Source of the DNA: Oscillatoria sp. HE19RPO
GTDB lineage: Bacteria; Cyanobacteriota; Cyanobacteriia; Cyanobacteriales; Laspinemataceae
DNA: 45,227 bases
Reading direction: 5' to 3'
NCBI RefSeq assembly: GCF_024220515.1
Contig: NZ_JAMXOT010000111.1
Span: forward strand, 1 to 45,227
Numbering within the stretch: the stretch's first letter is position 1; each line of letters opens with the position of its first letter. The notes beneath the pieces are model-generated. The model was not told the origin of the DNA and did not search any database. It worked only from the letters and a program-made list of their open reading frames with translations. Below, piece after piece: positions 1-6,286 of the stretch. The translations under genes were made by a program, and so were the position numbers.

Positions 1-5
1 TTTAA

Positions 6-172
6 AACTGTAACTTTAGACAATAAACAGCACAAAACATCAACAATCACCTAACTCAATCCCTAAGCGATTAAGCTATAAACTCACCATAGCAAGGGTT
101 CCCCGCTTTTATTGTAACTGTAACTTTTATCTAAAAGTTACAGTTGAATCCGGAAACTATCCCCGTTACAGT
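6..172. repeat. Repeated AACTGTAACTTT motif with a 13-bp hairpin
   Basis: AACTGTAACTTT occurs at 6-17 and again at 116-127, and inverted at 134-145. The last two form a perfect 13-bp inverted repeat (116-128 with 133-145) around the loop ATCT. A shorter GTTACAGT follows near 165-172. There is no T-tract after the hairpin, so it is not an obvious terminator. It lies directly upstream of the first gene at 209. It could be an operator for a dimeric regulator or part of an element end; neither can be shown from sequence alone. Confidence 0.55.
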
Positions 173-208
173 GGACTAATGGCAGGGGATTATTTAGAGG
201 GTTAGGGG

Positions 209-454
209 ATGGATGACGAAGATAAAAAAATTTTAAACTCGCGCTTCACACTCTTGCATTCTGCAATAGAAGAATTAGCTAAATTTCGACGCAATGAATA
301 TGACGGATTGCTGTTAAGGATTGAGCGGCTAGAATCCAAAATACAAGAAACTTTTCTGAGCGCGCAATTCAACGGTGCAATTTGGGGTGCAAGCGCGGGA
401 CTTCTCGCCTCTATGATGTTTCTTGCTTTTCTGTACTTGTCTGGAGATAAATAG
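209..454 (+). CDS. Small protein, soluble helix plus C-terminal membrane anchor
   Basis: This 81-residue protein is not a family I recognise. Residues 1-50 are charged and helix-prone, with a likely coiled coil around residues 30-48 (LLLRIERLESKIQETF). Residues 57-77 form one hydrophobic membrane span, followed by a short tail. The pattern resembles small phage or plasmid membrane proteins in which a cytoplasmic coiled coil is tethered to the inner membrane; that comparison is inference. The ATG at 209 follows the purine-rich stretch GAGGGTTAGGGG, which can act as a ribosome site. It is the first gene of the rightward HIP1-free cluster, 31 bp before the next gene, so it is probably co-transcribed with it. 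Confidence 0.6.
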   Translation: MDDEDKKILNSRFTLLHSAIEELAKFRRNEYDGLLLRIERLESKIQETFLSAQFNGAIWGASAGLLASMMFLAFLYLSGDK

Positions 455-485
455 CCATTCGTTTAGAATAAGGAGGAATTAAAAG

Positions 486-1262
486 ATGACTTACAGCGAT
501 GACGATCCAGTTGACAATAATTATTGGGAACCGAGTTGTGATGTTTGTTACTTGCTTAACAGTATAAACAATACGGTCAACGGAACCGCTAGTCAGGTTA
601 CACAAATTCAAACAAATGTTACCAATATTTTAAACTTATTAAAAGCAAATTTAGACACTGATTTCAGTTGGAACTTTGGAATCAAGGAAAAGTGCGGCGA
701 TGAATCTGATATAACATATCAGGGAGTGAAAAAAGGTGTACCCGCTCTAATCGATATGAGCAAACACCTCGCCAAAATACTGGCAGATTTCCAAAAATCA
801 TCCTGTGAGAATGACAATTTCGCAGTTGTCCCCGAATGGTGGCAACTCCGGCCAGAGGCGGATAGACCTCAATTGATTGTCCAGTGTGCCGAGAAGAAAG
901 AAGATGGGACCTTGGGTAGCGCGAAATATGTTGTCACCATTCCTCACTATCAACATTCAACCCCCCACGGGTTTCCCCCTTTCTACAGTTTAGACAAGGG
1001 TTCAATTCAGGGCATACTAACCTTAAAGGACAATAGCAAGGTGATAATTTACGGGAGAAATTTGCAGCACGTCAGAAACGTCTTGTTTAATATTTACAAT
1101 GAAATAGATCCAAGCTATAGGCTACCCTATCAGCCTAAAGCAAGTCAGACCAATAACCCTGATTTTAAGGAAGTGACGGTTTATCCTAAATATGGCAAAT
1201 ACTTCGCCACGGGTGCTAGAAAGACCGTACCTGATTGGGTCGTGCGATATGAAAATAATTAA
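486..1262 (+). CDS. Hypothetical protein, 258 aa, in the HIP1-free cluster
   Basis: I do not recognise this protein. A strong ribosome site (AAGGAGGAAT at 471-480) precedes the ATG and supports the start. The N-terminus (MTYSDDDPV, then YWEP) resembles that of the protein at 3348 in the same cluster (MSYDNDAYWQP). Residues 23-55 are rich in N, T, V and Q and could form an amphipathic helix or coiled coil. The C-terminal 130 residues look like a compact mixed alpha/beta domain (QLIVQCAEKKEDG, SKVIIYGRNLQHVRNVL). There is no signal peptide or membrane span. Cys18 and Cys21 form one CxxC pair. It is probably co-transcribed with the 209 gene. Function is unknown; given the context, a structural or accessory protein of a mobile element is possible. 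Confidence 0.65.
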   Translation: MTYSDDDPVDNNYWEPSCDVCYLLNSINNTVNGTASQVTQIQTNVTNILNLLKANLDTDFSWNFGIKEKCGDESDITYQGVKKGVPALIDMSKHLAKILADFQKSSCENDNFAVVPEWWQLRPEADRPQLIVQCAEKKEDGTLGSAKYVVTIPHYQHSTPHGFPPFYSLDKGSIQGILTLKDNSKVIIYGRNLQHVRNVLFNIYNEIDPSYRLPYQPKASQTNNPDFKEVTVYPKYGKYFATGARKTVPDWVVRYENN

Positions 1263-1270
1263 AGAAAATA

Positions 1271-1290
1271 ATCGTACCTTAAGGTGCGAT
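1271..1290. other. 20-bp near-palindrome after the 486 gene
   Basis: ATCGTACCTT followed at once by AAGGTGCGAT pairs at nine of ten positions, with one G-T pair in RNA. It begins 8 bp after the stop codon. There is no T-tract, so it is a weak terminator or processing hairpin at most. The surrounding stretch 1291-1418 shows no convincing gene. Confidence 0.35.
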
Positions 1291-1418
1291 AGACGGTTCC
1301 CAGACAGTTTAACCGGAAATCATAAAAAAGTCATGTTAATGTCATGAAAGAAGGATGGAAAAAGAAATATTGAATGAGAGTTAACTAAGTGATTGCCTCT
1401 CTTATTTCGGTAGTTCTT

Positions 1419-1529
1419 TAGCTCCCCGGGAGTTCCCCGTTAGCTCACGGATAGCTCCCCGGGAGTTCCCCGTTAGCTCACGGATAGCTCCCCGGGAGTT
1501 TTCCGTTAGCTCATGGATAGCTCCCCGGT
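1419..1529. repeat. 33-bp tandem repeat, three and a half copies
   Basis: Units start at 1419, 1452 and 1485, and a partial unit starts at 1518. The unit begins TAGCTCCCCGGGAGTTCCCC and ends with a GTTAGCTCACGGA-type half. The first two units are identical; the third differs at three positions. Each unit contains the near-palindrome CTCCCCGGGAG. One frame stays open across the array (APREFPVSSRI repeated), but it has no start codon or ribosome site and ends at TAG 1529, so I do not call it coding. It sits in the leader of the polyglycine-tail gene. Confidence 0.85.
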
Positions 1530-1571
1530 AGATTCCCTCTAGCTTCGCAGTGGCTTCTCGGTAGATTCCCG

Positions 1572-1615
1572 GCATCAAGCCGACATCAAGCCGACATCAA
1601 GCCGACATCAAGCCG
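1572..1615. repeat. 11-bp tandem repeat, four copies
   Basis: Four consecutive copies of an 11-bp unit (first GCATCAAGCCG, then three of ACATCAAGCCG) end 45 bp before the next start codon. The period is exactly one third of the adjacent 33-bp array, and the motif GGTAGAT(T/A)CC flanks and interrupts both arrays. About one helical turn per unit would present the same DNA face repeatedly, which would suit a protein-binding array; that role is inference. Confidence 0.85.
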
Positions 1616-1660
1616 GTAGATACCGGATATCAAACACTACGCAGAAAACCATCAATACCT

Positions 1661-2275
1661 ATGGCTCTAAGACCAGGACCTTTACCCGGCTTCTATGTCG
1701 AAGCGATCACCGGGATTGCAAAGGATAAAACGGCGACCAACTTAGATGATTTCACTAACGAGCGTTGTTTTATCAAAGATTGTATTGCTTCATGGCTAGG
1801 CTTAAGCATTGCCACTCCACGGGTCGGAGAATTTAGCACTACAGGCAATACCAATCAAACGAACGCGAAACGAGAATTCGCCATCAAGGGACAACGGGGA
1901 AGCTATCAATATAAAGTGCTCTTAATTCCCGGAACCCCTATCCCGGTGAAATATTACGATTCAGCCACGGGACAGTTACTCTCTGAATCCATCCCGCGCA
2001 ACTCATTCTCGATCAGTTTAAGCCGAACGATTGGGGTTGCTGAGTTAAGAGCATGGTTAATCAATGGCGTTGGCGCGGGCGATAAAGGAGCCATAAAAGG
2101 GGAGACATTGCCCAAAATCATGGGTTTAGTCACTCCCTGGGATAGAAAATACATTTGGCGCACTCCTATGATCCCGGCTCCTGTCTTTGACTCTCCAAAT
2201 AACACGGTTTACCTTACCAGTAACCCGAATGCGATGGGTTCTGGAGGTGGCGGCGGCGGCGGCGGCGGCGGTTAA
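1661..2275 (+). CDS. Hypothetical protein with polyglycine C-terminal tail
   Basis: This 204-residue protein is of unknown family. The ATG at 1661 has no clear ribosome site. The body (residues 1-190) looks like a compact, mostly beta protein without signal peptide or membrane span. The last residues are G-S-G followed by about ten glycines, encoded by a GGC-type trinucleotide run at 2244-2272 directly before the stop. Its N-terminus (MALRPGPLPGFYVEA) matches that of the GH10 gene at 2407 (MGLREVIPQGFYLG) in M-[AG]-L-R-x5-G-F-Y. A glycine tail suggests a flexible linker, a tail-fibre-like tip or an assembly signal; none can be chosen from sequence. The trinucleotide run could vary in length without shifting frame. 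Confidence 0.6.
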   Translation: MALRPGPLPGFYVEAITGIAKDKTATNLDDFTNERCFIKDCIASWLGLSIATPRVGEFSTTGNTNQTNAKREFAIKGQRGSYQYKVLLIPGTPIPVKYYDSATGQLLSESIPRNSFSISLSRTIGVAELRAWLINGVGAGDKGAIKGETLPKIMGLVTPWDRKYIWRTPMIPAPVFDSPNNTVYLTSNPNAMGSGGGGGGGGGG

Positions 2276-2406
2276 TACTTATATTGGGCTATGGGTAACC
2301 CTAGCCCGATCCATCCCGCGCTTCATTCCTCTTCTAACAACGCGAAAAAGGGGAATAAAAGCGCTTTTTTTGTGAATATCTGCCCCTCAAGTAAAGTCCA
2401 AAAAAT

Positions 2407-3351
2407 ATGGGATTGAGAGAAGTTATCCCCCAAGGGTTTTATCTCGGTTGTTCGGAAAAAGTCTCCGTATTAAAAAACGATGAATTACTGCAAGAAATCG
2501 CTGTAAATAACTTTAATCTCATTACACCACAGAACGAGTTAAAGCTGGGAGTTGTCGCGAAAAATCCGGATAGTTTTAATTTTGATGAGTCTGATTGGTT
2601 AGTTGATTTTGCGACTAAACATAACCTAGAAATTCGCGGTCACCTGATGTTATGGGCGCGGTCCATCCCTGACTGGACAAGGGAAATGGAAGGTTATCAA
2701 TTCAAAGCTACGGTTAAAAATTATATTATTGAAACATTAAGAAGATATCCACAAATCAAAACCTGGGATATTTGCGGGGAATCCTTTGATGATAGAGGTC
2801 ACCCCAGAAATACGATTTTAAGCGCTTCAATCGGTGACGATTGGATACACCAGTCATTACTTTGGGCCAAGGAAGTAAGACCCGATGCTCAACTTTTTTA
2901 TTCTGAGTTTAGCTTGCATAGACCCCTAAAACAGCAAGCTGTATTAAATCTTATAGAAAGCTGTGATTCTATGGATATCCCCCTAGATGGAATAGGGATA
3001 CAACTTCACCACAATCTAGCGGGTATTTTTAAACTTTTTAGGCTGAAAAATTTTATTAAAACAATCCAATCTAGGGGAATCGACACTCACTTTAGTGAGG
3101 TTACCATTTGGGGTCAAACCAGTATCAACGGCAATTTTTCTCAATTTTCTCATGGTATTGCCTACTCGGAGTTACTCCGTTTAGCTGGCGATTGTGGAAT
3201 CACAACGTTTAATTTATGGGGAATCACCGATCGCGATGCCTGGAGATGTCCAGAAAGAGAACCTTTCTTGTTCGACGTAGATTATCAGCCTAAGCAAGCA
3301 TACCACGCAATTCTCAACGCTTTAAGTCAGTCAAAGGGGATAGCCGGATGA
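2407..3351 (+). CDS. GH10 family glycosidase (endo-beta-1,4-xylanase-like), divergent
   Basis: The whole 314-residue protein follows the GH10 TIM-barrel order. PQNELKLG corresponds to the family's ENxMKW. GHLMLWARSIPDW corresponds to GHTLVWHSQLPDW. WDICGESF corresponds to WDVVNEAF and gives the acid/base Glu125. GIQLHH corresponds to GFQSHL, with Gln199 and His201 retained. HFSEVTIW carries the nucleophile Glu231, and LWGITDRDAW and FDVDYQPKQAYHAIL are typical of the C-terminus. Two subsite residues differ: the WH histidine is Ala84 and the NE asparagine is Gly124. No signal peptide or carbohydrate-binding module is present, unlike most secreted xylanases. The stop overlaps the next start by 4 bp (ATGA), so the genes are translationally coupled. 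The substrate may not be xylan. The fold call is firm; the activity is uncertain. Confidence 0.85.
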   Translation: MGLREVIPQGFYLGCSEKVSVLKNDELLQEIAVNNFNLITPQNELKLGVVAKNPDSFNFDESDWLVDFATKHNLEIRGHLMLWARSIPDWTREMEGYQFKATVKNYIIETLRRYPQIKTWDICGESFDDRGHPRNTILSASIGDDWIHQSLLWAKEVRPDAQLFYSEFSLHRPLKQQAVLNLIESCDSMDIPLDGIGIQLHHNLAGIFKLFRLKNFIKTIQSRGIDTHFSEVTIWGQTSINGNFSQFSHGIAYSELLRLAGDCGITTFNLWGITDRDAWRCPEREPFLFDVDYQPKQAYHAILNALSQSKGIAG

Positions 3352-3728
3352 GTTACGATAATGACGCTTATTGGCAACCTTACGCGCAAATCGATAATGA
3401 AATATCAGACGAGGATTATCTGTCTGGGTTAAGGTTGCCTGATATGTTTTTCCCCTCTGACGATCCTCAACAAACTTTTAGGGTGACGGTTTTCTCCGTT
3501 AGGGCCAAACCTACTTGGTGGCTAGGGGGAACACTATCTCGCTGCATTGGGGCTATCGAGCAGGAACTGGATTTCGTGTCCGGTTCCCAGGTTATCCCAC
3601 TCAATCAGATTACCCTGGTAAGGATAGGGGCAGTATCTCAAGAGACCTATTTTAAATTCCAGCCCCCATTCTGGTTTCTACAATGCACCCTATTGGTTGA
3701 GTTGTATGTAGTCCCTCCCATCGAATAG
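3348..3728 (+). CDS. Hypothetical protein, 126 aa, coupled to the GH10 gene
   Basis: I do not recognise this protein. It starts within the stop codon of the GH10 gene and probably depends on its translation. The N-terminus (MSYDNDAYWQP) resembles that of the 486 gene (MTYSDDD, then YWEP). The first 45 residues are acidic. The rest is beta-rich with many aromatic residues (RAKPTWWLGGTLSRCIG, FKFQPPFWFLQCTLLVELYVV). There is no signal peptide. It is the last gene before the first HIP1 site (about 3744) and the strand switch. Coupling suggests a partner or specificity subunit of the glycosidase; this is inference. Confidence 0.6.
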   Translation: MSYDNDAYWQPYAQIDNEISDEDYLSGLRLPDMFFPSDDPQQTFRVTVFSVRAKPTWWLGGTLSRCIGAIEQELDFVSGSQVIPLNQITLVRIGAVSQETYFKFQPPFWFLQCTLLVELYVVPPIE

Positions 3729-3838
3729 AGGGACCCCTTTTAATGCGATCGCGTTACTCTATCCCAGGGGATTCATTCTAACTGATAAATCGGCCTGCGG
3801 CGCATGAACCTAGACCGATTTAAAGCCAATCCATCCAC

Positions 3839-6286
3839 TTAGGGCATCAGTTCAGCGAAGGGAATAGAACCGTCACTGATTTGAATAAAGTAGTCAGAGG
3901 AGGAGTTGGAGGCGATTTCGGAGGTTTCGATTTCTCCAACGGGTAAGATGAGGGTTGCCTCTAGATGCGATCGCACGACGGAGGAGCAATGGGACTCGCC
4001 ATGCAGACAATCCACCAGGAGTTGATTGGCTTGATAATACTGGTCCAGGAGAGCCAGTTGTCGGGGGGTAAACTGCCAATTGTGACCGATTTGGCGATGC
4101 TCAATCAACAAGGCGCGAAATTGTTCAGCCCAGGCATGAGCCCGATCGCCCCACCAGGCAATTAAGCGATCGCGACCCTCTCCTGGATCCGGCAGTTGGT
4201 CCTTGAGTTCCTGCAATCCTTCGCGCAATTCTGGCTCGTGGGTTAAACTGCGATCGAGGTCCAGGGCAAATCCCAGGGAGAGGATCTGTTTGACATTGGG
4301 GTTGCGAGTCAGACTATAAACCAACTCCAAAGCGCGTGCCAATTCCAAATCCAAAGCTAACTCCGGGGCCAAATCCCGGGCTAAACTTGGATCCAGGGCC
4401 AGGGCTAAACCCAAGCTGCGATCGCGAAACAGGGTAAAGTAAAATGCCCGAATTGCTGCGGGTTTGTACAATCCTTCCAGCCGTTGGCATTTAGCACTGG
4501 TACAGGCTAAAAATTGCTGCAACTTGCCATCGGCAACCAACATCACATCAATTTGCTGCTTCATCGCTTGCAGCAGAGGGTCAGCATTTCTTAACAATTC
4601 CGAGGTGAGTAACACCACTTCTCGCCATCGCGGTTCGCAGACATGACTCGCTAACCCTTGTAACTCTTCTTCCAAGGCATTGGGATCCGGTGTCGCCGCC
4701 ATCTGACGAGCGGTAAAATATTCCTGGAAGGTTAAATGGGAAAAGGAATAAATTCCCCGGGCGCGTTCGACTAATAAACCATGTTGAGCTTCGATCGCAT
4801 CTAGGACCGTGGCACTTTGCGATCGCAAGGTTTCCGGTTCGGTATTGCTTTGGGGTAACGTTGCCAAATAATCCCCAATATAATGCTCAATTTCCCGCTT
4901 TTCAAAAAAGTAATTACTTTGAGCAAATGTGGTTGCCGCAATTTGACTCAACAGTTCTATTTTTCTAGGCAAAGATAAATTGCGATAGACTTCATCCCGT
5001 TGAATGCCTCGGGCTTCATCCCATCGCACCAGGAGAATATCTAACCCAGCTTCATAGAGTTTAGAGCGTTTGTTAGGGAAATCTTCTTTTGTCTGAAAGA
5101 TACTCGCCGTTAGGGTTAACAGAATTGGCGTAACCACTAACTCCCGAATCGGTTGATTTTCAGGCAGATTGAGCTTTTCTAAAAAGCGTTGAGAGAGCAG
5201 TAAACCCCCTTCGCGATCGCCACGGGCTGCGACAAACCACTTGTCCGCAAACGCTTCAATTTGTGAGCCATCAAAATCAGCCAGTTCTACTTCCGTAAAC
5301 CCAGTAAAGTGGTACTCGCCTCCTCCCAAGCGACAGGTGATCGCCACCCTATTTTGATAGTAGGTTTCACAAAATTGGTTGATTTCGTGAGCGATTTCTC
5401 GGCTGTCGCTGTCTGGGACTTCATCTAATCCATCTAACAGAACCAAGGCGTGACCGCCTTGCAGCAAGGTTTCAACCTTAGCTGCCGATAGGCCAAAGTG
5501 GTTAAAATTTTTAGTAATATAATCAAGTAAACTGCGATTTCCACTCTGTTTACTTTCCGTTGTCCAGTCCCTAATTCTAATAAAAACAGGCAGACCCAAA
5601 ACATCCGGAGTATCGGCTGTTTCTTTGTCTGTTTTTTCTTGAATACAGCGCAGAGCCAGGGATTTTAAAAATGTAGTTTTACCGGCTCCGGGCTTACCAA
5701 ATATTAACAACTTGGAATAGGTGGAAACCGCTTGGATTGCTGGCATCTGCGGCTGTTGTTCTGATGCAGAAATGCTCCGGTTTACCTGATTCTTGGACTG
5801 ACGAGTTTGCCTGGGCTGAAATTGGAGGTCCGAAACTTCTAGCCATCGTTGCCGACTCAGTTGTTCGAGAATATTAACCTGGATGTAGATATCATCGAGC
5901 GCGACAGGTTGGGAGTTGTCTAAAAGACGTAGCGTTCCACATTGAGCGAGAATGGGTTCCCTCATGCGCGATCGCATTTCGGTGACTAAGGCGGTGATAT
6001 CTTCAATGGGCGGGTCTAAACTGGGATCCTCGGCGGTTTTGGGCTGCTCTGGGGTAACTTCAGGGGGTAACTCGGCAATCTCTTGCCAATCCAAGTCTAA
6101 TTTGTAGCAAATTTCGATAAAAATCGCCCGTTCAATAGGCCGTCCTGTCAAAAATTTCCAAATAGATTGACGGGTTTCCAAACCCACTTCTAAGGCTAAA
6201 TCTTGTTGCGTCCAGCCACTTCTTTCAAACGCAACTTTTGCCTTGAGCTTTCCAGTTTTTGAAGCATTTAGCGATCTTTTTCTCAT
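3839..6286 (-). CDS. HTH-NACHT STAND NTPase
   Basis: This 815-residue protein has an N-terminal helix-turn-helix (about residues 12-75, with GWTQQDLALEVGLETRQSIWKF), followed by an acidic linker. A NACHT NTPase comes next. Walker A is GKPGAGKTT at 197-205 and Walker B is LVLLDGLDEV at 281-290. FSHLTFQEYFTARQMA around residue 520 is the typical winged-helix end of NACHT proteins. Residues 560-720 form a helical domain with runs of LALDLE/LARDLA type, as in the C-terminal helical domains of cyanobacterial NACHT proteins. Bacterial NACHT proteins include antiphage sensors, and HTH-NACHT forms are common in filamentous cyanobacteria. It has no neighbouring effector gene. A defence or signalling role is inference. 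The ATG start gives an intact HTH and no frameshift is seen. Confidence 0.9.
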   Translation of the reverse strand: MRKRSLNASKTGKLKAKVAFERSGWTQQDLALEVGLETRQSIWKFLTGRPIERAIFIEICYKLDLDWQEIAELPPEVTPEQPKTAEDPSLDPPIEDITALVTEMRSRMREPILAQCGTLRLLDNSQPVALDDIYIQVNILEQLSRQRWLEVSDLQFQPRQTRQSKNQVNRSISASEQQPQMPAIQAVSTYSKLLIFGKPGAGKTTFLKSLALRCIQEKTDKETADTPDVLGLPVFIRIRDWTTESKQSGNRSLLDYITKNFNHFGLSAAKVETLLQGGHALVLLDGLDEVPDSDSREIAHEINQFCETYYQNRVAITCRLGGGEYHFTGFTEVELADFDGSQIEAFADKWFVAARGDREGGLLLSQRFLEKLNLPENQPIRELVVTPILLTLTASIFQTKEDFPNKRSKLYEAGLDILLVRWDEARGIQRDEVYRNLSLPRKIELLSQIAATTFAQSNYFFEKREIEHYIGDYLATLPQSNTEPETLRSQSATVLDAIEAQHGLLVERARGIYSFSHLTFQEYFTARQMAATPDPNALEEELQGLASHVCEPRWREVVLLTSELLRNADPLLQAMKQQIDVMLVADGKLQQFLACTSAKCQRLEGLYKPAAIRAFYFTLFRDRSLGLALALDPSLARDLAPELALDLELARALELVYSLTRNPNVKQILSLGFALDLDRSLTHEPELREGLQELKDQLPDPGEGRDRLIAWWGDRAHAWAEQFRALLIEHRQIGHNWQFTPRQLALLDQYYQANQLLVDCLHGESHCSSVVRSHLEATLILPVGEIETSEIASNSSSDYFIQISDGSIPFAELMP

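What the first reader, a model, noticed from the sequence alone, without database searches (positions are those of the whole stretch)
1..3730. HIP1-free five-gene block, likely an acquired module of unknown function
I found no GCGATCGC from 1 to about 3740, while the octamer is frequent in the rest of the window. The block holds five rightward genes, four of unknown family, with tandem repeats inside and an HTH-NACHT gene at its edge. A cytosolic GH10-like enzyme in such a setting is unusual. The block may be part of a phage, plasmid or integrative element whose left side is outside the window. This is the best candidate here for an undescribed system.
Basis: partly seen in the sequence, partly recalled or inferred. 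Interest (0 to 1): 0.7.

Follow-up and report, generated by a model that had tools for sequence, protein, structure and literature searches.

The report
RNA-guided mobile element of cyanobacteria
The strange gene block is one end of a family of roughly 10-18 kb mobile DNA elements of cyanobacteria that appear to choose where to insert with a small guide RNA, which matters because RNA-guided insertion of this kind is known mainly from tiny one-gene elements.

Summary
Observation confirmed: HIP1 (GCGATCGC) is absent from 1-3744 and the five genes are there. The block is the right arm of an integrated mobile element ending at 3771. Five of eight same-genus genomes have the empty site (rpsN beside the NACHT gene); three have the insertion. 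The left end, on another contig of the same assembly, carries an IS110-type (DEDD) recombinase gene and a noncoding RNA whose four short guides match both element ends and both target halves: a bridge RNA. The same plan (structural arm, short tyrosine recombinase, second arm, terminal IS110) recurs across cyanobacteria; IS110 follows the recombinase in 49 of 56 sufficiently long loci. Guides fit their own targets far better than swapped ones (27 elements: sum 129; permutation maximum 86). HIP1 depletion is specific to this arm (0.087/kb against 0.99/kb in the other arm, 19 loci), so it does not date the insertion. GH10 is lineage-specific cargo; NACHT is host flank. What the structural arm makes is unproven; jelly-roll-like ORF5 hints at a surface or virus-like structure. 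IS110 integrases are known in some filamentous phages, hence a new variant of a known kind.

The parts
1..3771 (+). right (structural) arm of the integrated element, cut at left by the contig end
   Evidence: Homology to the empty sites of G212, G170, G113, G079 and G202 begins at 3772 (query base 42 of window:3731-6400; aligned).
116..145 (.). imperfect palindrome upstream of ORF1, in the stretch between ORF1 and the expected divergent tyrosine recombinase gene
   Evidence: Self-match on the opposite strand; sequence read. Role unknown.
209..454 (+). ORF1, 81 aa, charged N-terminal part and C-terminal hydrophobic stretch (by eye)
   Evidence: Homologue (70% identity over 80 aa) in G202 beside a broken divergent tyrosine recombinase gene. 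No convincing Pfam or PHROG match.
486..1262 (+). ORF2, 258 aa; its C-terminal domain (about 112-255) is shared with the C-termini of long collagen-like or coiled-coil proteins of other elements
   Evidence: AlphaFold block means 87-96 over residues 131-220; no PDB match at E<=1e-3; one unnamed viral model, A0A510E869, at E 9e-7.
1418..1615 (.). tandem arrays of 11-bp units and multiples (11, 22, 33) between ORF2 and ORF3
   Evidence: arrays of period 11, 22 or 33 at the same position in 4 of 4 relatives examined, with different unit sequences.
1661..2275 (+). ORF3, 204 aa, unknown
   Evidence: homologues in G143, G130, G202 and G096 (Oscillatoria sp. SIO1A7).
2407..3351 (+). GH10-family glycosidase, 314 aa, no signal peptide seen by eye; both catalytic Glu positions kept, Asn before the acid/base replaced by Gly
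   Evidence: Pfam PF00331 E 7e-60; alignment to solved xylanases. Roles of the residues recalled.
3348..3728 (+). ORF5, 126 aa, beta-sandwich/jelly-roll-like protein
   Evidence: 38 homologues in the 80 named loci; AlphaFold pLDDT 92.1, pTM 0.84, eight strands; only weak PDB matches, none at E<=1e-3, best 1.8e-3.
3745..3752 (.). first HIP1 site, inside the conserved right terminus of the element
3757..3771 (-). right donor end (RD); on the minus strand after core GAA it reads TCCCCTGGGATAGAG; RNA guide GGGTGATTC agrees with the window-strand end AGGGGATTC in 7 of 9 bases
   Evidence: This end is seen at 6 places of the own genome, the window included, with diverging flanks; a seventh, C177, ends before it. 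Guide on G000:C323.
3772..3774 (.). core TTC (GAA on the other strand), shared by donor and target
   Evidence: Occupied and empty sites compared.
3772..3779 (-). left half of the target plus core (AGAATGAA), matching the left target guide
   Evidence: Guide CTTGAGAATGAA on G000:C323; identical in 4 of 5 empty sites, one base off in G113.
3839..6286 (-). HTH-NACHT gene: host flank, not part of the element
   Evidence: Present in 8 of 8 congeners including 5 with the empty site; Pfam NCH2 and NACHT.

Best explanation
The block is the right arm of an integrative element (10.7 kb in G130 if its contigs join as I think; a complete relative copy in G281 is 11.5 kb). SHOWN: it is an insertion with defined ends; the left end carries an IS110-type DEDD recombinase gene preceded by a noncoding region with a conserved RNA fold; two short guides in it match the two ends of the element and two match the two halves of the empty target; in other elements the guides differ and tend to match their own targets. 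INFERRED: the IS110 protein with this bridge RNA excises the element as a circle (end-to-end junction = donor) and recombines it with a matching chromosomal site, sharing only a short core (GAA/TTC); changing the target-binding loop retargets the element. The mid-element short tyrosine recombinase would then serve another step (for example resolving multimers of the circular form), and the regulator and a winged-helix-like protein (by eye) would control and start episomal replication. The structural arm would be expressed from the region beside that recombinase and make extracellular, fibre-like or particle-like products (coiled-coil and collagen-like proteins, ORF2 domain, jelly-roll-like ORF5, small membrane protein), with GH10 trimming host sheath or wall glycan. 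That last function is the least certain step.
For: Empty site in 5 of 8 congeners with a clean breakpoint at 3772, occupied in 3. Own left end on C323: IS110 gene 441-1832, 463 aa, junction GATGTACAGTGAA|AGATGC beside rpsN. Guides there: left target CTTGAGAATGAA against AGAATGAA; right target AGATGTA against AGATGCT (5 of 7); left donor ACAGTGAA exact over 8; right donor 7 of 9. Permutation test: right target, 27 elements, sum 129, maximum of 5000 permutations 86, own best or tied in 21 of 27; left target, 21 elements, 97 against 80, own best or tied in 12 of 21. Two copies in G281 differ in the right target guide in step with their targets (GTTACA and GTTGTT). Second empty site, upstream of ndhC: the two flanks of the G281 insertion adjoin in 8 of 11 relatives read. 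Left donor guide matches the left end by 8-9 bases in 12 of 12 chosen cases covering seven end variants (no shuffled control). RNA alignment of 19: 32 pairs, 13 with two-sided changes. IS110 residues D7 E58 D102 D105 S314 G315 kept in 52 of 52. IS110 downstream of the recombinase on the same strand in 49 of 56 loci with at least 8.5 kb.
Against: Window (C71) and left end (C323) are separate contigs; the own middle part is unresolved, and no tyrosine recombinase was found in the own assembly nor in G143. In 6 of 27 right-target and 9 of 21 left-target cases another guide scored higher; some ends may be misplaced by my motif search, others may be real misfits. 3 of 5 empty sites differ from the exact target by one base. 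By eye, the guides of Arthrospira copies fit the ends I examined less clearly, and the second own copy (C187) fits its right target only partly. IS110 Pfam scores are only just above the cut-off of 29 (34.7, 30.9, 33.9). The Arthrospira and IS110c groups were not in the permutation test. 7 of 56 loci gave no IS110 match. A circular relative, plasmid NC_019743.1, has none. No movement, RNA expression or particle was observed.
Confidence: 0.87

Rival explanations
1. The short tyrosine recombinase is the integrase, and the IS110 gene is a separate insertion sequence that happens to sit at the end of the element.
For: Phage-integrase domain (PF00589 E 1e-16) with the catalytic R, K, H, R, H, Y columns conserved (roles recalled). 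7 of 56 long loci gave no IS110 match. The plasmid relative has the recombinase but no IS110.
Against: The recombinase lies in the middle of the element. The RNA beside IS110 matches the far structural end as well as the near one, and the whole unit inserts at those breakpoints. IS110 has the same place and strand in 49 of 56 loci.
Confidence: 0.07
2. The element is a new kind of temperate virus: the structural arm makes a particle, ORF5 being a jelly-roll capsid or spike protein.
For: Recurring arm of coiled-coil/collagen-like, jelly-roll-like and small membrane proteins. ORF5 fold with weak capsid-type matches. One viral predicted structure resembles ORF2.
Against: No terminase, portal, capsid or Zot family by Pfam in 25 of 27 ORFs of a full element. 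No match among 50,697 phage records for ORF2 or IS110, and none in IMG/VR for the GH10, recombinase, ORF2 or IS110 queries (single-protein queries find close relatives only; the ORF5 query could not be run). Jelly-roll-type matches also include carbohydrate-binding and appendage proteins.
Confidence: 0.35
3. The element is an integrative plasmid whose surface proteins (fibres, glycan binding, GH10) act in host adhesion or sheath remodelling, without any particle.
For: A 20.8 kb circular plasmid, NC_019743.1, carries the recombinase (43.5%), an S163-like gene and an ORF5 homologue (E 3e-19). Recombinase relatives, all below 60% identity and not only cyanobacterial, lie on 210 plasmid records. 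Phage and virus searches were empty.
Against: That plasmid is typed non-mobilizable, so transfer is unexplained; I did no dedicated search for transfer genes. The surface location of the proteins is a guess.
Confidence: 0.45
4. Vertically inherited, fast-evolving chromosomal genes that simply lack HIP1.
For: The site is occupied in three species, and the genes have diverged (GH10 59% in G143 and 53% in G130; ORF5 89% and 87%).
Against: Intact empty sites in 5 of 8 congeners, several right ends in one genome, the same arm at unrelated sites in other genera.
Confidence: 0.01

Closest known systems
IS110-family insertion sequences with bridge RNA (IS621; PMC11208160, passages read) and seekRNA of IS110/IS1111 (PMC11187229, passages read)
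   Same: DEDD transposase with C-terminal Ser-Gly, noncoding region upstream of the gene, two target and two donor guides, each including the short core.
   Different: Here the RNA and recombinase sit at one end of a multi-gene unit; the far donor end lies about 10 kb from the RNA gene.
Filamentous phages thought to integrate with an IS110-type transposase: Neisseria Nf, Thermus phiOH16/Zuza (PMC11437467, passages read), Acinetobacter Af1 (PMC11209303, passages read)
   Same: An element with the IS110-type gene at one terminus of the integrated form (Thermus and, as cited there, Neisseria Nf). The Thermus paper reports a phage without the gene (phiOH3), like our plasmid relative.
   Different: No Zot found by Pfam in the element scanned; different host phylum; larger than Af1 (7.2 kb); guide-target matching not mentioned in the passages I read ('bridge RNA' occurs 0 times in PMC11437467).
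Cyanobacterial plasmid pMIC7113.08 (NC_019743.1)
   Same: Tyrosine recombinase divergent from a long operon with S163-like and ORF5 homologues.
   Different: Circular, no IS110 match, other genes on the second arm.
Tailed prophages and their satellites (recalled)
   Same: Regulator, integrase-like gene, fibre-like genes.
   Different: No hallmark tailed-phage family in the scanned ORFs.

Membership tests
IS110 bridge-RNA recombinase | DEDD catalytic residues and C-terminal Ser-Gly | tested here: met
   D7, E58, D102, D105, S314, G315 invariant in 52 of 52 aligned proteins; Pfam PF01548 above cut-off in 3 of 3 scanned.
IS110 bridge-RNA recombinase | structured noncoding RNA beside the gene | tested here: met
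   19-sequence alignment, 32 pairs, 13 with two-sided changes. No Rfam family up to E 0.5 on the own region. Expression not tested.
IS110 bridge-RNA recombinase | target guides match the insertion site | tested here: met
   Permutation test: own best or tied in 21 of 27 and 12 of 21; two empty sites. Not met in the remaining 6 and 9.
IS110 bridge-RNA recombinase | donor guides match element ends | tested here: met
   Left donor 8-9 base match in 12 of 12 chosen cases; right donor guide GGGTGATTC against ends reading GAATCCCC in the own element and G281.
IS110 bridge-RNA recombinase | RNA-guided recombination in vitro or in cells | not testable with these tools
   Needs experiment.
IS110 insertion sequence (simple IS) | short element with one transposase gene | tested here: not met
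   In G281 one unit of 11.5 kb between the two ends holds IS110 and the structural arm.
Filamentous phage (Inoviridae) with IS110 integrase | Zot/pI-type morphogenesis ATPase | tested here: not met
   No Zot by Pfam in 25 of 27 ORFs of L206; a remote relative could be missed.
Tailed phage/prophage | terminase, portal, major capsid protein | tested here: not met
   None in the same scans; a jelly-roll-like protein only.
Tyrosine recombinase (phage integrase family) | catalytic R-K-H-R-H-Y | tested here: met
   R43, K76, H147, R150, H173, Y182 invariant in 13 aligned relatives (roles recalled). The gene was not found in the own assembly.
Glycoside hydrolase family 10 | GH10 domain with two catalytic Glu | tested here: met
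   PF00331 E 7e-60; Glu positions aligned with solved xylanases. Activity not tested.
Virus | particle with packaged genome | not testable with these tools
   Needs experiment.

The most novel reading that the evidence does not exclude
A widespread, undescribed lineage of cyanobacterial non-tailed viruses or particle-forming elements that integrate with a reprogrammable bridge RNA, so that each copy can change its insertion site by changing a few guide bases, and whose particle is built from jelly-roll-like ORF5 and coiled-coil or collagen-like fibre proteins.
Probability: 0.3. Interest if true: 0.93.

Novelty: new variant of a known kind. Interest (0 to 1): 0.82.

Why it matters
Bridge-RNA recombinases are of interest as programmable DNA insertion tools and are known mainly from one-gene insertion sequences. 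These elements appear to be natural cases in which such a system inserts about 10-18 kb, with many guide-target pairs for reading its rules, including two copies in one genome with different guides. They also suggest a directly testable answer to how IS110-encoding phages choose sites. The arm-specific lack of HIP1 within one element is a new handle on the open question of what creates or keeps HIP1 in cyanobacterial genomes: both arms sit in the same host, yet differ about elevenfold.

Tried and rejected
HIP1 gap as proof of recent transfer: rejected, because the other arm of such elements is HIP1-rich and a gap this long somewhere in the window has P 0.17. HIP1 palindrome as the attachment site (a first idea, since 3745-3752 lies in the repeated right end): rejected, the breakpoint is at 3772 with core TTC. 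Tyrosine recombinase as integrase: demoted, see rivals. NACHT as part of the block: rejected. Phage relatives: none found. Fold searches: ORF2 has no PDB relative at E<=1e-3 and its one viral hit has no name; ORF5 has only weak jelly-roll-type matches, so capsid, appendage and carbohydrate-binding roles cannot be told apart. PADLOC up to E 0.01: none for the five block genes; the NACHT protein matches PDC-S60 at 4.9e-11, not followed up. Rfam: none on the own RNA region. Literature: no title or abstract start in the listings joined bridge RNA with cyanobacterial integrative elements, and (all five terms) gave no paper; this is an open PMC library without preprints, and searches listed 20 of 56 and 15 of 18 papers. 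The Microcystis plasmid paper PMC12510456 (passages) has no occurrence of IS110.

Rows dropped before counts: of 60 listed IS110 genes, 28 had guides that my pattern could not parse. Of the 32 parsed I left out four in the permutation test: G130 and G143 (same guide and target as G000), L188 and the first L174 gene (tandem or overlapping with the L174 gene kept). Of the 28 left, 27 had a candidate right end and 21 a candidate left end. Six left target guides that the pattern had missed or misplaced were corrected by hand from the printed RNAs before the test; four of these stayed in, three of them with a candidate left end (ranks 1, 9 and 11.5), so this helped the left-target result little. 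The arm comparison used 19 loci with all three landmarks, L188 left out. The 49 of 56 count includes several Arthrospira copies from one genome and two overlapping loci (L174, L188). The 80 loci are the best of 89 (capped).
Full report
Observation. HIP1 occurs 69 times in the window and first at 3745. Five rightward ORFs fill 209-3728, only one of them in a known family, GH10. The window begins at the end of contig C71 of a 7.67 Mb, 511-contig assembly. A gap of this size at the window start has P 0.0022 under uniform placement, but P 0.17 for any place in the window, so the gap by itself proves little.

The block is an insertion. Searching the flank in the eight same-genus genomes held gave the NACHT gene in 8 of 8. 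In G212, G170, G113, G079 and G202 the sequence left of window position 3772 is the 5' region of rpsN: the empty site. In G000, G130 and G143 it is the block's right end. A search from the rpsN side found the left junctions of these three on other contigs: G000:C323, G130:C3, G143:C51. In G130, contig C62 (3411 bases) and the first 7279 bases of C3 add up to about 10.7 kb; that C62 belongs to this copy is inferred, because G130 has further right ends on C57 and C38. Parts of the right terminus occur at six further places in the own genome (C56, C72, C180, C177, C159, C125); in the five that extend past it the flanks differ. Four IS110 genes or fragments were found in the own genome (C323, C187, C494, C141).

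Gene order. Combining G130's contigs from the right end: ORF5, GH10, ORF3, 11-bp repeat array, ORF2, ORF1, then divergently a 196-aa tyrosine recombinase, further small genes including an HTH regulator, and at the far end a 463-aa IS110-type transposase. Loci from complete or named genomes repeat the plan: a short recombinase divergent from a structural arm of coiled-coil or collagen-like proteins, ORF2 domain, ORF5 homologue and small membrane proteins; on the other arm often an HTH regulator, a winged-helix-like candidate replication protein (by eye only), a protein with a GNKYWYYRY-type motif, and IS110 last. A scan of GTDB genomes with the recombinase alignment kept 80 loci (of 89, capped), each titled as a cyanobacterium, ten of them in one complete Arthrospira genome. 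IS110 lies downstream on the same strand in 49 of 56 loci with at least 8.5 kb. The complete copy G281:C1 measures 11.5 kb between its ends; L190 spans about 18 kb from ORF5 to IS110.

Bridge RNA. Upstream of the own IS110 gene on C323 is a noncoding region. It contains CTTGAGAATGAA and, 17 bases on, ACATCTTTC; later GACAGTGAA and GGGTGATTC. The empty target in the same orientation reads TAGAATGAAAGATGCTG in G079 and G202, with one base different in each of G113, G170 and G212; the element's left end reads TACAGTGAA and its right end GAATCCCC. So one RNA holds matches to both target halves and both donor ends, each including the core, as described for bridge RNAs in PMC11208160 (passages read). 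The alignment of 19 such regions predicts two stem-loops with conserved stems; the bases next to GAA and TTC in the first loop vary.

Tests of the guides. With 27 elements, own right target guides score 129 in sum; the best of 5000 permutations scores 86; own is best or tied in 21 of 27. With 21 elements, own left target guides score 97 against a permutation maximum of 80; own is best or tied in 12 of 21. Failures may be misplaced ends or real misfits. Two copies in G281 carry different right target guides that follow their different targets. For one of them the empty site was found independently upstream of ndhC: left and right flanks adjoin in 8 of the 11 relatives read (L255, L256, L259, L261-L265; in L262 and L263 after extending the left alignment by 12 bases); in the other three (L257, L258, L260) other sequence lies between. 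Left donor guides match the left ends by 8-9 bases in 12 chosen cases covering seven end variants (no shuffled control). By eye, Arthrospira copies and the second own copy on C187 fit less well at the target.

HIP1. In 19 elements with all landmarks the structural arm has 10 HIP1 in 115,447 bases, the recombinase-to-IS110 arm 151 in 152,449, and the flanks 49 in 91,329. The structural arm is lower in 15, higher in none, tied at zero in 4. GC is 0.40 against 0.44, and observed over dinucleotide expectation is 20 against 123, so composition does not explain it.

What the structural arm does. ORF5 is predicted with high confidence as an eight-strand sandwich, with weak resemblance to capsid, appendage and carbohydrate-binding folds and nothing at E<=1e-3. 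ORF2's C-terminal domain has no solved relative at E<=1e-3 and one unnamed viral one. GH10 keeps both catalytic Glu and, among the 80 named loci, was matched only in Oscillatoria sp. SIO1A7 and Phormidium pseudopriestleyi, the latter being G202 of the window's genus. No hallmark virus gene was found by Pfam in 25 of 27 ORFs of one complete element, and phage and IMG/VR searches were empty. A circular 20.8 kb plasmid carries the recombinase, an S163-like gene and an ORF5 homologue without an IS110 match. I put an integrative-plasmid reading slightly ahead of a virus reading.

Known and new. IS110-type transposases at the end of integrated filamentous phages are known (PMC11437467 and PMC11209303, passages read), and bridge or seek RNAs are known for IS110 and IS1111 (PMC11208160, PMC11187229, passages read). 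New here, as far as the listed searches show, are this cyanobacterial element family, the guide-target matching for a multi-gene unit, and the arm-specific HIP1 contrast.

Noticed in passing
window 1418-1615; L049 7731-7920; L050 2148-2359; L051 2235-2373; L052 8219-8276: Between ORF2 and ORF3 each copy examined (5 of 5) has a tandem array with period 11 bp or a multiple, but the unit sequences differ between genomes: position and period conserved, sequence not.
   Followed up: partly
elements in L156-L235, structural arm vs recombinase-IS110 arm: HIP1 density differs about elevenfold (GATC about 2.2-fold) between the two arms of the same elements. Cause unknown.
   Followed up: partly
CP066886.1 (Arthrospira sp. 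PCC 9108), loci L161, L169, L189, L191, L194, L196, L197, L201, L204, L207: Ten loci of this recombinase family in one complete Arthrospira genome; IS110 matched in the gene maps of 8 of the 10.
   Followed up: partly
G000:C187 (L249) 91-470 and 1829-3214: A second IS110 copy in the own genome whose RNA has a different left donor guide (AAATAGAA) matching its own end; other ORFs lie between the RNA and the IS110 gene.
   Followed up: partly
L174 and L188 (Calothrix sp. FI2-JRJ7, one contig): Two copies with identical RNA and IS110 genes stand in tandem about 15.4 kb apart, as if one had inserted beside the other or arisen from a multimer.
   Followed up: no
L097 and L098 (G087:C35, recombinase genes 21.5 kb apart): Two separate stretches of one contig are 100% identical over 15.5 kb: a large tandem duplication or an assembly effect.
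   Followed up: no
window 116-145: Imperfect palindrome between ORF1 and the expected divergent recombinase gene.
   Followed up: no
window 3839-6286: The HTH-NACHT host gene matches the PADLOC candidate defence model PDC-S60 at E 4.9e-11.
   Followed up: no
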